This document shows positions 11,608-16,201 of a stretch of 45,771 nt of DNA, piece by piece. The stretch's first letter is position 1, and every line of letters starts with the position of its first letter. The notes below the pieces were generated by a model. That model was not told the DNA's origin. It made no database searches and worked only from the letters and a program-made list of their open reading frames with translations. This stretch comes from Lachnospiraceae bacterium (lineage in GTDB: Bacteria; Bacillota; Clostridia; Lachnospirales; Lachnospiraceae): contig JAGAMY010000001.1 in NCBI GenBank assembly GCA_017624495.1, positions 1 to 45,771 of the forward strand, given 5' to 3'. The translations under genes and the position numbers were made by a program.

Positions 11608-12882
11608 TTAGAAAAAAGATTCTATGATACCTTCAAAATACCATGTGAAATCCTTTTTTTCTAATGCGGCTTTTGTACAGATTTCTCTTTCCCAGTAAAC
11701 ATTTCCATCTATTTTATACTGTATGGTTCCTACAAGCTGGTTTTGTTTTACCGGAGCAGATAGTTGTTTTTTTATGTCACAGGTAATTTCTGCTGTTTCG
11801 TCCGGCTTTAACAGAATTGCAGGAGCACCCTGCTGGTCTTTTATATAGACTTCTACACTTGCATTTTCAAAAAATGCTTTTGTTTTTGCATCCGACACAG
11901 GAATATCTTTTAACCATTCTTCCGCAACAGGTAAAGCTGCCAAATCTGTTTTCTGATAATTTGCCAGTCCATATTCCATAAGTTTTCTTGTGTCAGACCA
12001 TTTATAGGTTTTATTATTGGGCCATCCACAGGCTAATAATGCCACTACATAGGTTCGTTCATCTCTTTCTAATGCACCTACATAACAATAACCTGCATCA
12101 CCGGTAAATCCGGTTTTACCTGATAAAGCCCCCTCCATCATGGAAAGAAAAGCATTGTGATTATTACAGGAAAAGCTTCTGTCACCGCTATGTATCTCTC
12201 CCTGTTCATTTTTTACCTGATTGGAAAAACTGTAGGAAGGCGTTCGTGTGATTTGAAGAAACTGATCTTTTTGCGGTGAACGCTTGATACAGTAACTCAT
12301 GATACGGGCTAAATCCTCTGCGGTTGTGGAATGAACAACTTTTTGGATAATTCCGTCGGCTGCGGTGATTTCGGTTTCCGCATCTAAACCGTTGGGTGTG
12401 ATAAAGGTTGTGCTCATACAACCGATTTCTTTTGCTTTACGATTCATCAGGTCTGCAAAGCCTTCTACAGTGCCGCCAATGTGTTCTGCGATGGCAACTG
12501 CGGAATCATTATGGGATTCAAGCATGAGGGAATGAAGTAAATCCTTTAAATAATAGAATTCGCCTTCCCGTATATTGAGCTGTACATCGGGCATGGTAGA
12601 AGCATATTTGGATACTTCTACAAGATTTTCTAATTTACCATTTTCTAATGCAAGGATACAGGTCATAATTTTTGTGGTACTTGCCATGGGAAGTACGCTC
12701 TGGGCATCTTTTGCGTATAAAATTCTTCCAGAATCCGCATCCATAAGAACGGCAGATTTGGCGTAGAGTTCACTTTCTTTTATGGCTTTTTCTGTTTCGC
12801 CTGCCATACATAAAAGACTATTTCCAAAGAAAGAAATAAGGCATGAAAGACACAAAATAAAAAATAAAAGGATACGCTTCAT
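11608..12882 (-). CDS. D-alanyl-D-alanine carboxypeptidase (S11 family)
   Basis: Penicillin-binding protein 5-type enzyme that trims the terminal D-Ala from peptidoglycan stem peptides. 424 residues with an N-terminal signal peptide (hydrophobic residues 4-25). The active-site motifs are STTK (68-71), SHN (123-125) and KTG (256-258). A C-terminal beta-rich domain follows, ending in a segment that could associate with the membrane (FTWYFEGIIESFF). SD AAGGA is 7 bases before ATG. The second S11 enzyme of the window is at 14963. Confidence 0.92.
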   Translation of the reverse strand: MKRILLFFILCLSCLISFFGNSLLCMAGETEKAIKESELYAKSAVLMDADSGRILYAKDAQSVLPMASTTKIMTCILALENGKLENLVEVSKYASTMPDVQLNIREGEFYYLKDLLHSLMLESHNDSAVAIAEHIGGTVEGFADLMNRKAKEIGCMSTTFITPNGLDAETEITAADGIIQKVVHSTTAEDLARIMSYCIKRSPQKDQFLQITRTPSYSFSNQVKNEQGEIHSGDRSFSCNNHNAFLSMMEGALSGKTGFTGDAGYCYVGALERDERTYVVALLACGWPNNKTYKWSDTRKLMEYGLANYQKTDLAALPVAEEWLKDIPVSDAKTKAFFENASVEVYIKDQQGAPAILLKPDETAEITCDIKKQLSAPVKQNQLVGTIQYKIDGNVYWEREICTKAALEKKDFTWYFEGIIESFF

Positions 12883-12978: not shown

Positions 12979-13007
12979 TTGCGAAACCTGTCGCATACTG
13001 TTATAAT
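12979..13007 (+). promoter_or_regulatory. Promoter of the small toxin transcript
   Basis: TTGCGA (12979-12984), a 17-base spacer ending in TGT, then TATAAT (13002-13007). The predicted start is about 13013-13015, immediately before the left inverted-repeat arm. Confidence 0.75.
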
Positions 13008-13014
13008 GTCGGCA

Positions 13015-13041
13015 GGGAAACCAAAAGCGAGGCGGCTCACC
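13015..13041 (+). repeat. Left arm of the inverted repeat bounding the toxin unit
   Basis: GGGAAACC (13015-13022) and GCGGCTCACC (13032-13041) are the reverse complements of 13262-13269 and 13248-13257. In RNA terms the 5' end of the toxin message can pair with its own 3' end, and it has the same sequence as the 5' end of the predicted antisense RNA. Confidence 0.8.
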
Positions 13042-13047
13042 TTCCAA

Positions 13048-13080
13048 CTTTCGGAGGGTCTACAGCCCTCCAGACGAAAG
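13048..13080 (+). promoter_or_regulatory. Leader hairpin with a Shine-Dalgarno mimic
   Basis: CTTTCG (13048-13053) pairs with CGAAAG (13075-13080), and GAGGG (13054-13058) pairs with CCCTC (13066-13070). The real SD GGAGGG (13084-13089) could compete with GGAGGG (13053-13058) for CCCTCC (13066-13071). This suggests a switch between open and sequestered SD; it is inferred from sequence only. Confidence 0.5.
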
Positions 13081-13095
13081 AAAGGAGGGTTGCCA

Positions 13096-13188
13096 ATGGT
13101 TACATATGCGGATTTAATCCAATTTTGTATTCTCATTGTTGCTCTTGTTGGTCTGTGCTATCAGATTTTCAAGGACAAAAGAAAATAG
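13096..13188 (+). CDS. Small hydrophobic membrane peptide, candidate type I toxin
   Basis: 30 residues beginning MVTYADLIQF, with a hydrophobic core (about residues 8-23) and a charged tail ending KDKRK. This matches the pattern of Firmicutes putative holin-like toxins (TxpA/BsrG-like): a short M-T-Y start, one membrane helix and a lysine-rich C-terminus. SD AAGGAGGG ends 6 bases before ATG 13096. A longer frame upstream (from 12916) would begin before the predicted transcription start, so it is not used. The locus has its own promoter, a structured leader, and an opposing promoter downstream. The peptide is solid as an ORF; toxicity is inference. Confidence 0.7.
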   Translation: MVTYADLIQFCILIVALVGLCYQIFKDKRK

Positions 13189-13215
13189 CCGCCACTACTG
13201 CGAATAGTGACGGCT
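13187..13215 (-). terminator. Stem-loop at the toxin stop codon, terminator of the antisense RNA
   Basis: 11-bp stem with one mismatch (13187-13197 with 13205-13215), loop of 7. On the minus strand a T-rich tract follows; on the plus strand none does. It therefore should end the antisense RNA, while the toxin message may run on to about 13275. It overlaps the toxin TAG. Confidence 0.7.
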
Positions 13216-13247
13216 GTTACATTGTAACACGCTAATGTTATTATTTC

Positions 13248-13269
13248 GGTGAGCCGCTTCGGGTTTCCC
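13248..13269 (+). repeat. Right arm of the inverted repeat bounding the toxin unit
   Basis: GGTGAGCCGC (13248-13257) and GGTTTCCC (13262-13269), complementary to the left arm at 13015-13041. It lies just inside the predicted antisense start. Confidence 0.8.
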
Positions 13270-13286
13270 TCTTTATATCTTTAATA

Positions 13287-13315
13287 AATATAACATATCT
13301 AAAAACTTTTTACAA
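13287..13315 (-). promoter_or_regulatory. Promoter of the predicted antisense RNA
   Basis: On the minus strand: TTGTAA (13315-13310), a 17-base spacer ending in TGT, TATATT (13292-13287). No minus-strand coding gene begins downstream until the carboxypeptidase, so this promoter is unexplained except as an antisense source. Confidence 0.65.
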
Positions 13316-14962: not shown

Positions 14963-16201
14963 ATGATGCATTCCTTTATCGCTCTTTTACTTAGTCTGCA
15001 TATTTTACTTTATTCTGCTCTTAGTTGTATACCTTTTTCTTTTACACAATATTTGTCGACACCCCCCATAACCGCTACGCAGGAAAATACAAATGTACCA
15101 CCAAATGACACCGCAGAATCTACGGGAGTTCAAATTACTGCACCAAGTGCAGTTCTTATGGAAGCTTCCACCGGAACAATTATTTACGAAAAAGATTCTC
15201 ATGCAGTCCGTCATCCGGCAAGTATCACAAAAATCATGACGTTAAATTTGATTTTTGAAGCCATAGAAAATGGAAAAATCAGTATGACAGATACTGTCAC
15301 CGTCTCCGAGCATGCTGCCGGCATGGGTGGCTCACAGGTATTTTTAGAAGCTGGGGAGACACAGACGGTAGAGACCATGATAAAGTGTATCAGTATTGCC
15401 AGTGCCAATGATGCTTCTGTAGCGATGGCTGAATTTGTCAGTGGCAGTGAAGCTGCATTCGTAGCTGAAATGAACGAAAAAGCAAAGGAACTAGGTATGA
15501 AAGACACTACCTTTGTAAACTGTTGTGGCTTAGATACGGAAGGTCATATGACAAGTGCCTATGATATAGCCTTAATGTCCAGAGAACTTTCAGTCAACCA
15601 TCCACAAATCCATGATTACTGTACGATTTGGATGGATACGATTACCCATAACACAGCAAAAGGCTCATCCGAATTTGGTCTTACAAACACCAATAAGCTT
15701 ATCCGCCAATATCCTTATGCCACCGGGTTAAAAACCGGTTCCACCGGGCTTGCTAAGTTTTGTTTGTCAGCCACAGCGAAAAAAGATGGCATGGAAATGA
15801 TTGCCGTCGTGTTAGGTGCTGAAAATCCAAATAACCGCTTCAATGATGCAGCCACCCTTCTAAACCACGGATTTGCCAAGTGTAAGGTTTACACGGATGA
15901 AAATAAGGATGCGCTCCCAAATATTCAGGTAAAAAAAGGAAAAACAGATACAGTGAGTCTTTCCTATAAAAATACCTTCCAATATCTTTCCGTTGATGGT
16001 GCAGACCTTTCCCAGATAAAAAAAGAGCTGCATATTCCAAAATCCGTAGATGCTCCATTAAAAAAAGGAGAGAAAGTCGGTGAAGCCACTTATTCTCTTA
16101 ATGATAAAAAAATCGGAACCGTAGACATCATTCTCGCCAGCGATATATCCAAAGCAAAATTCATGGACTACCTGCAGGAAATCCTGCAAAGCTATTTTTA
16201 A
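14963..16201 (+). CDS. D-alanyl-D-alanine carboxypeptidase (S11 family)
   Basis: Second S11 enzyme, 412 residues. A signal peptide (about residues 1-22) is followed by a threonine/proline-rich linker to about residue 55. Active-site motifs are SITK (87-90), SAN (147-149) and KTG (257-259), with the usual C-terminal beta domain. It differs enough from the enzyme at 11608 in linker and motif residues to be a distinct paralogue. SD GGAGGTG precedes two adjacent ATGs (14963, 14966). A TATAAT at 14932-14937 is a likely -10 with a poor -35. It is probably exported and membrane-associated. Confidence 0.92.
   Translation: MMHSFIALLLSLHILLYSALSCIPFSFTQYLSTPPITATQENTNVPPNDTAESTGVQITAPSAVLMEASTGTIIYEKDSHAVRHPASITKIMTLNLIFEAIENGKISMTDTVTVSEHAAGMGGSQVFLEAGETQTVETMIKCISIASANDASVAMAEFVSGSEAAFVAEMNEKAKELGMKDTTFVNCCGLDTEGHMTSAYDIALMSRELSVNHPQIHDYCTIWMDTITHNTAKGSSEFGLTNTNKLIRQYPYATGLKTGSTGLAKFCLSATAKKDGMEMIAVVLGAENPNNRFNDAATLLNHGFAKCKVYTDENKDALPNIQVKKGKTDTVSLSYKNTFQYLSVDGADLSQIKKELHIPKSVDAPLKKGEKVGEATYSLNDKKIGTVDIILASDISKAKFMDYLQEILQSYF

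What the first reader, a model, noticed from the sequence alone, without database searches (positions are those of the whole stretch)
12979..13315. Compact candidate type I toxin-antitoxin locus with face-to-face promoters
A 30-residue membrane peptide (13096-13188) with a strong SD is bracketed by two good promoters pointing at each other. One is TTGCGA-17-TATAAT on the plus strand, the other TTGTAA-17-TATATT on the minus strand, both with TGT extensions. The minus-strand transcript would be noncoding and end at the stem-loop over the toxin stop codon. The peptide resembles Firmicutes holin-like toxins, but the surrounding RNA organisation is read directly here and may not have been described for this lineage.
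Basis: partly seen in the sequence, partly recalled or inferred. Interest (0 to 1): 0.75.

Follow-up and report, generated by a model that had tools for sequence, protein, structure and literature searches.

The report
Gut-bacterial toxin gene with antisense RNA
A tiny membrane-peptide gene in a gut bacterium is paired with an opposing RNA that very probably keeps it silent; the peptide belongs to a known family, but the conserved RNA arrangement, in which the messenger's two ends pair and the silencing RNA starts with a copy of the messenger's own start, was not found described for this group.

Summary
The 30-aa peptide (13096-13188) belongs to Pfam PF16935 Hol_Tox (31.0 bits, cut-off 23.3). 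In this window alone the promoters do not beat chance (5 found, 7.3 expected), but among 90 non-redundant intact loci a strict extended -10 promoter occurs on the plus side in 67 of 85 and the minus side in 83 of 88 testable, against 27 of 3,180 control windows. The peptide is under purifying selection (dN/dS about 0.3). Best reading: a type I toxin-antitoxin locus whose antisense RNA overlaps the toxin mRNA's 3' end, as in TxpA/RatA and BsrG/SR4. Some Hol_Tox loci of other groups show comparable pairing with different arms. An antisense-RNA model matches 69 of 298 genomes of the family. Transcription, toxicity and neutralisation are untested. New member of a known kind.

The parts
12979..13007 (+). 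Toxin promoter TTGCGA-17-TATAAT with TGT extension
   Evidence: motif at this place in 67 of 85 intact loci
13014..13041 (+). 5' arm of the long-range helix, first about 28 nt of the inferred toxin mRNA (start about 13014, inferred from the -10 position)
   Evidence: Inverted repeat; cognate pairing and covariation
13048..13080 (+). Leader hairpin with GGAGGG (13053-13058) and CCCTCC (13066-13071); the CCCTCC or the 5' arm can pair with the Shine-Dalgarno sequence
   Evidence: Sequence; folds; its six consensus pairs are formed in 75 to 78 of 78 sequences
13081..13089 (+). Shine-Dalgarno sequence, 6 nt before ATG
13096..13188 (+). 30-residue Hol_Tox peptide ORF
   Evidence: purifying selection in the family
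13134..13146 (+). Stretch inside the ORF that in the family consensus fold pairs with the SD and start codon (CAUUGUUGCCCUU in the consensus; CATTGTTGCTCTT here)
   Evidence: Consensus structure; low synonymous variation at codons Ile-Ala-Leu
13187..13215 (-). Stem-loop over the stop codon: predicted intrinsic terminator of the antisense RNA (tail ATTTTCTTTT)
   Evidence: used as the search pattern, so its conservation among those hits is by construction
13216..13228 (.). Small second hairpin (GTTACATTGTAAC), sequence variable between loci
13248..13275 (+). 3' arm of the long-range helix; on the minus strand the 5' end of the antisense RNA; inferred plus-strand termination region with the following T run (weak as a local hairpin in this window)
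13178..13280 (-). Inferred antisense (antitoxin) RNA, about 100 nt, noncoding
   Evidence: Promoter and terminator; RNA model R1 matches 13183-13269, E 6.9e-14, but the window was one of the sequences R1 was built from
13287..13315 (-). Antitoxin promoter TTGTAA-17-TATATT with TGT extension
   Evidence: motif at this place in 83 of 88 intact loci

Best explanation
A chromosomal type I toxin-antitoxin locus of the Hol_Tox kind. Supported by comparison: the peptide is conserved as a protein; both promoters are conserved; by position the antisense RNA and the mRNA overlap over roughly 95 nt at the mRNA 3' end; the mRNA 5' leader pairs with its own 3' end by a covarying helix. Inferred: during transcription C-rich leader segments (or a segment inside the ORF) mask the Shine-Dalgarno sequence; when the 3' end is made, the 5' and 3' arms zip together into a closed, poorly translated mRNA. 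The shorter antisense RNA begins with a near copy of the 5' arm, so it can displace the mRNA's own 5' arm from the 3' arm, form a long duplex that RNase III can cut, and let the freed leader mask the ribosome site again. If the antisense RNA is lost, the peptide is made, inserts in the membrane and stops growth.
For: Hol_Tox match 31.0 bits over a 23.3 cut-off. One hydrophobic helix-sized stretch before a basic tail. dN below dS in 692 of 702 scored pairs (800 sampled), medians 0.26 and 0.86. Promoters 67/85 and 83/88 against 27/3,180. Cognate 5'/3' arms pair better than non-cognate ones (-44.7 against -38.4 kcal/mol, 0 of 5,000 permutations; 81 of 90 loci used). RNAalifold on a plain MAFFT alignment of 78 mRNAs finds the same helix; one pair is U-A in 42, G-C in 25, C-G in 2, A-U in 1, G-U or U-G in 3 and non-standard in 3 of 76. 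Double-sided changes 47 cells against a mean of 15 in shuffles, 0 of 1,000. Predicted SD accessibility is higher in the full mRNA than with the antisense-covered region blocked in 71 of 75. Facing promoters in 3 of 8 loci of a second Hol_Tox subfamily and arm pairing in some other groups. Known relatives act by 3'-end overlap and RNase III (passages of PMC6562991); 5'-3' closure is known in aapA (passages of PMC6733600).
Against: No expression, toxicity or neutralisation data. The promoters in this window alone do not beat shuffles. The cognate 3' arm is better on average but not uniquely so: its median rank is 11 (0 = best) of 81, and it is in the best tenth for 30 of 81. SD accessibility is predicted to be low in every state (0.17 full, 0.03 blocked, 0.02 nascent), and that of the start codon does not fall on blocking (0.09 against 0.11), so the switch step is weak; single-sequence folds and the consensus fold also disagree on the SD's partner. 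Covariation rests mainly on a few columns, and related sequences can exceed shuffles without structure. The excess of G-U over A-C mismatches (111 against 21) comes largely from a few recurrent sites. The plus-strand terminator is not a clear local hairpin in this window. The locus is absent from three relatives that keep the surrounding genes.
Confidence: 0.8

Rival explanations
1. A small mobile element of the MITE kind: the inverted repeats are transposon ends recognised by a transposase, and the peptide and RNA are cargo.
For: The unit is dispersed: only 12 of 129 loci share more than 320 nt of flank with another. Several copies per genome and near-tandem copies occur. The window's site is empty in three relatives. 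28-nt inverted repeats.
Against: The repeats lie inside the two promoters, and similarity between many loci runs outwards over the promoters, so they do not look like the ends of the unit. In most printed pairings the leader arm carries a bulge of about 4-7 nt. Loci of other Hol_Tox groups pair with different arm sequences. Not settled: no target-site duplication could be read because the flanks are too diverged, and my test of whether the repeat stops at the transcript starts did not discriminate.
Confidence: 0.07
2. A small membrane protein with a non-toxin role (holin-like or antibacterial peptide), whose antisense RNA is ordinary gene control rather than an antitoxin.
For: Hol_Tox is named 'putative'; a Streptococcus paper says the function of its PF16935 gene is not known and calls a homologue antibacterial (passages of PMC11357604).
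Against: Predicted masking of the ribosome site, the overlapping antisense RNA, patchy distribution, scattered copies and plasmid carriage of relatives (438 plasmid records match the L166 peptide) are what addiction-type modules look like.
Confidence: 0.1
3. A decayed, silent copy in this genome.
For: One copy found in a 54.7% complete genome; weak plus-strand terminator in the window; 26 of 116 non-redundant loci were not classed as intact by my start-codon rule, though some of these are cut by contig ends.
Against: In the window the ORF, SD, both promoters and the antisense terminator are present and the arms can pair (-48.4 kcal/mol, 0 of 200 shuffles).
Confidence: 0.06

Closest known systems
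Hol_Tox peptides (Pfam PF16935), annotated 'putative holin-like toxin'
   Same: Peptide family (relatives). In a second subfamily found in the same bacterial family, facing promoters by the strict motif in 3 of 8 loci. Unbroken 5'-3' arm helices of 14-18 pairs in four lactobacillus-group plasmid loci and two streptococcal prophage loci
   Different: Arm and leader sequences differ from the window's. The strict promoter motif was found on neither strand in the four plasmid loci and only on the minus side in the two prophage loci, so a facing antisense promoter is not established there
TxpA/RatA and BsrG/SR4 type I systems of Bacillus subtilis
   Same: Antisense RNA pairing over the mRNA 3' end by 100-140 bp; in BsrG also tighter masking of the SD on antitoxin binding and a main helix P1 whose 3' part is an antitoxin target (passages of PMC6562991)
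   Different: No RatA match in Rfam searches; no TxpA or BsrG model among the NCBIfam hits
hok/Sok and aapA/IsoA
   Same: Toxin mRNA closed by a 5'-3' long-distance interaction; in aapA also SD-masking hairpins during transcription (passages of PMC6733600)
   Different: There 3' trimming activates translation; here the antisense RNA covers the 3' end itself, and trimming is unknown
par/Fst (pAD1) and Lpt
   Same: Two convergent RNAs, short membrane peptide (passages of PMC5608710)
   Different: Those have direct repeats complementary between the RNAs; here the repeats are inverted, so the two RNAs share sequence at their 5' ends
RefA9 (Rfam RF02844, Enterococcus antisense RNA)
   Same: The stop-codon hairpin resembles it (26.5 bits)
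   Different: Below the gathering score of 49; 40 of 64 positions matched in that search

Membership tests
Hol_Tox peptide family (PF16935) | Whole-protein score above Pfam's gathering score | tested here: met
   31.0 bits against 23.3, residues 1-30 over profile 1-34
Type I toxin-antitoxin system | Small hydrophobic peptide conserved as protein | tested here: met
Type I toxin-antitoxin system | Antisense RNA encoded opposite the toxin mRNA (conserved promoter, terminator) | tested here: met
   Promoter 83/88; terminator; transcription itself not seen
Type I toxin-antitoxin system | Peptide toxic and antisense RNA neutralises it | not testable with these tools
   Needs expression experiments
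TxpA/RatA-BsrG/SR4 group | Sequence relation of the RNA to RatA (Rfam RF01776) | tested here: not met
   Only two tRNAs in the window reach gathering; no RatA among the four matches up to E = 5 in the 501-nt stretch
TxpA/RatA-BsrG/SR4 group | Antisense RNA overlaps the toxin mRNA 3' end | tested here: met
   Inferred antisense 13178-13280 overlaps the ORF end and 3' UTR; from predicted ends only
Fst/par family | Fst peptide model and direct repeats shared by the two RNAs | tested here: not met
   No Fst model among the NCBIfam hits; the repeats here are inverted
hok/aapA-type closed mRNA | 5'-3' long-distance helix in the toxin mRNA | tested here: met
   Comparative evidence only:
hok/aapA-type closed mRNA | Activation by 3' trimming | not testable with these tools
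   Needs RNA mapping
RefA9 RNA (RF02844) | Score at or above the Rfam gathering score | tested here: not met
   26.5 against 49 bits

The most novel reading that the evidence does not exclude
Hol_Tox loci across Firmicutes form one RNA-defined superfamily in which the antitoxin begins as a copy of the toxin mRNA's own 5' arm. The antitoxin works by strand exchange: it replaces the mRNA's 5' arm on the 3' arm, which both seeds the killing duplex and throws the leader back onto the ribosome site. The arm sequences drift freely between subfamilies while the pairing is kept.
Probability: 0.25. Interest if true: 0.6.

Novelty: new member of a known kind. Interest (0 to 1): 0.45.

Why it matters
I found no paper on type I antisense systems in Lachnospiraceae. 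Here is a compact family whose antisense-RNA model matches 69 of 298 sampled genomes (67 of 280 genera), with several copies in some. The covarying arms give a precise, testable structure, a covariance model for annotation, and a lead to RNA partners for the 'putative holin-like toxin' genes that are annotated without one, such as those on the 438 plasmid records.

Tried and rejected
(1) MITE or transposon ends: thought unlikely because the repeats lie inside the promoters; target-site duplications could not be read. (2) A test whether the inverted repeat stops at the transcript starts did not discriminate: cognate against non-cognate matches were 24.2 and 23.2 for the arms and 26.4 and 25.4 for the promoter sides. 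(3) A first promoter scan with a badly placed plus window was replaced (score 10 or more in 34 of 85 plus, 46 of 88 minus, 17 of 636 control). (4) Plasmid and prophage arms were mostly not significant by duplex energy (z: L183 -0.4, L184 -2.5, L185 -0.9, L186 -1.3, L181 +0.6, L182 +1.3) but were by longest unbroken helix (1, 0, 0, 0, 1, 0 of 150 shuffles). L183, L185 and L186 have near-identical leaders, as have L181 and L182, so these are about three independent cases. (5) Second subfamily, longest helix (7 of the 8 loci tested, L163 left out because its ORF start was miscalled): L162, L164, L167 passed (2, 2, 0 of 150); L160 gave 5 of 150 but its best helix lies in the promoter boxes, not the arms; L166 22, L161 46 and L165 34 of 150 did not pass. 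By duplex energy L160, L162, L164, L166, L167 beat all 200 shuffles, L161 all but 2, L165 not. Because of these limits and the missing promoters in the plasmid loci I lowered the novel reading from 0.3 to 0.25. (6) Antitoxin-only remnants: among loci not classed intact the plus promoter is kept in 1 of 23 and the minus in 13 of 26, but loci were picked by the hairpin, which lies nearer the minus promoter, so this is biased; my label 'LVS' wrongly took in L035 and left L063 out. (7) blastn of the locus against plasmid and phage records found nothing; the peptide against phages gave four hits with E of 1 to 3.

Full report
What was checked. The peptide matches Pfam PF16935 Hol_Tox at 31.0 bits (cut-off 23.3); the two NCBIfam hits (PepG1, ComI) are far below their cut-offs. 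Taken alone the promoters are unremarkable: the 2.5-kb region has 5 promoter-like sites against 7.3 in shuffles. One copy was found in its genome (one DNA match; one Hol_Tox match over the cut-off), but that genome is only 54.7% complete.

Relatives. DNA search found matches in 16 of 61 genomes, own included, with up to seven places in one. It hit 7 viral contigs. These hold 129 hairpins; with the window, 130 fragments, of which 116 remained after removing near-duplicates and short ones. My rule classed 90 of them (window included) as having an intact ORF and 26 not. The hairpin was the search key, so its conservation proves nothing; the other features were not selected for.

Peptide. In 89 aligned ORFs the core TY(S/Q/A)DL(I)Q..I(F/L)IVAL..L.Y..(I/V) is well kept. 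dN is below dS in 692 of 702 scored pairs (800 sampled), medians 0.26 and 0.86. Codons for Ile12, Ala14 and Leu15 (counted from the Thr of the TY motif) vary little synonymously (ATT 69 of 71, GCC 71 of 81, CTT 79 of 89), which fits pairing of this stretch with the SD and start codon in the consensus fold.

Promoters. The strict motif TTG-N3-N14-TGn-TAnnnT lies upstream of the ORF in 67 of 85 intact loci with enough sequence and, facing it, downstream in 83 of 88; random windows from the same contigs gave 27 of 3,180. This is the strongest evidence that the antisense RNA is real.

Long-range helix. In the window the first 28 nt of the inferred mRNA and the 28 nt at its inferred end are inverted repeats. 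In the family the same two places pair at about -45 kcal/mol, and leaders pair better with their own 3' ends than with those of other loci (mean -44.7 against -38.4; 0 of 5,000 permutations; 81 of 90 intact loci usable, 9 dropped for missing anchors). The preference is not exclusive: the cognate 3' arm has median rank 11 (0 = best) of 81 and is in the best tenth for 30 of 81. On an ordinary alignment of 78 mRNAs RNAalifold finds this helix; column pair 34/348 is U-A 42, G-C 25, C-G 2, A-U 1, G-U or U-G 3, other 3. Over 23 pairs, 94.0% of cells are standard pairs against 91.1% in shuffles, and double-sided changes number 47 against 15 (0 of 1,000 for each); slid controls fall to 32-63% paired. 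Inserted bases also match: several loci carry an ACACA-like insert in the leader and GTGTG in the 3' arm. Because the antisense RNA starts at the complement of the 3' arm, both RNAs begin with nearly the same sequence.

Ribosome site. In folds of 75 of 78 mRNAs (those with a recognised SD) the SD is mostly paired: mean unpaired probability 0.17 in the full-length mRNA, 0.03 when the antisense-covered region is blocked, 0.02 in the nascent leader; full exceeds blocked in 71 of 75. The start codon does not follow (0.09 full, 0.11 blocked). The direction for the SD fits a BsrG/SR4-like effect but all values are low, so this step is only suggestive.

Mobility and spread. Three same-genus relatives keep the D,D-carboxypeptidase gene, tRNA-Pro and scpB in order without the locus (L174, L177, L179). 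Of 12 relatives with scpB the other nine show no such neighbour in the fetched stretch, some because the stretch or contig ends. Only 12 of 129 loci share more than 320 nt of flank with another, so the unit appears to travel as a compact cassette with both promoters. A model of the antisense RNA matches 69 of 298 genomes of the family, own included; 6 of 196 in a sample of the order, of which one lies outside the family (how many of the 196 lie outside is not stated); and 2 of 199 in a sample of the phylum, one of them the own genome. PF16935 itself matches 106 of 298 genomes of the family, 97 over the cut-off.

Other Hol_Tox groups. The eight best Hol_Tox hits fetched (L160-L167) belong to a second subfamily. 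By the strict motif both facing promoters are found in three (L160, L162, L166), and hairpins after the stop codon can be seen by eye in most. Arm pairing by longest unbroken helix was supported in L162, L164 and L167, not in L161, L165 and L166, and in L160 only through its promoter boxes. Four lactobacillus-group plasmid loci (L183-L186) and two streptococcal prophage loci (L181, L182), about three independent cases, have unbroken arm helices of 14-18 pairs at comparable positions (0 or 1 of 150 shuffles), though duplex energy alone was mostly not significant and the strict promoter motif was missing on both strands in the plasmid loci and on the plus side in the prophage loci. This suggests that arm pairing may be a general Hol_Tox feature; it rests on few sequences.

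What is known. From passages only: in B. subtilis, antitoxins of TxpA, BsrG, BsrE and YonT bind the mRNA 3' end over 100-140 bp with RNase III cleavage, and SR4 also tightens SD masking (PMC6562991). aapA mRNAs are closed by a 5'-3' interaction, with SD-masking hairpins formed during transcription (PMC6733600). A review of Clostridia type I systems says TxpA-like sequences were predicted in C. bolteae (PMC6563280). A start-site study found an unannotated holin-like toxin gene in C. acetobutylicum (PMC9045289). A study of streptococcal prophages says the function of its PF16935 gene is not known (PMC11357604). Searches for Hol-Tox with antisense and for type I toxin with antisense RNA and Lachnospiraceae found no paper; the library lacks most subscription journals. 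Apart from two tRNAs, no Rfam family reaches its gathering score in the window; RefA9 comes nearest over this locus at 26.5 bits against 49.

Verdict. A type I toxin-antitoxin locus of a known peptide family (confidence 0.8), with a family-wide antisense RNA and a covarying mRNA helix. Transcription, toxicity and neutralisation remain to be shown.

Noticed in passing
G276:C11:17256-18084, G195:C7:25499-26689, G080:C1:1653175-1654030: Near-tandem arrays of Hol_Tox or antisense copies, e.g. three antisense matches spaced 371 nt in G276 and three Hol_Tox matches spaced 401 nt in G080.
   Followed up: no
L047, L063, L080, L088, L115, L132 (and L042 in part), upstream of the hairpin: A recurrent truncated version in which the toxin start is replaced by a similar TATCTGGTTTC...ATCCAGAT segment while the 3' half is kept; possible antitoxin-only loci.
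   Followed up: partly
L058, L107: Contigs titled Bacteroidales and Alistipes carry this locus; binning error seems likely.
   Followed up: no
window 11608-12882 (-) and 14963-16201 (+): Two D-Ala-D-Ala carboxypeptidase-like genes (named from recall) flank the tRNA-Pro/scpAB block in which the locus sits.
   Followed up: no
plasmid records: 438 plasmid records, mostly of Lactobacillaceae, encode a relative of the L166 peptide (422 of them below 60% identity); 27 of the 30 listed are annotated 'putative holin-like toxin'.
   Followed up: partly
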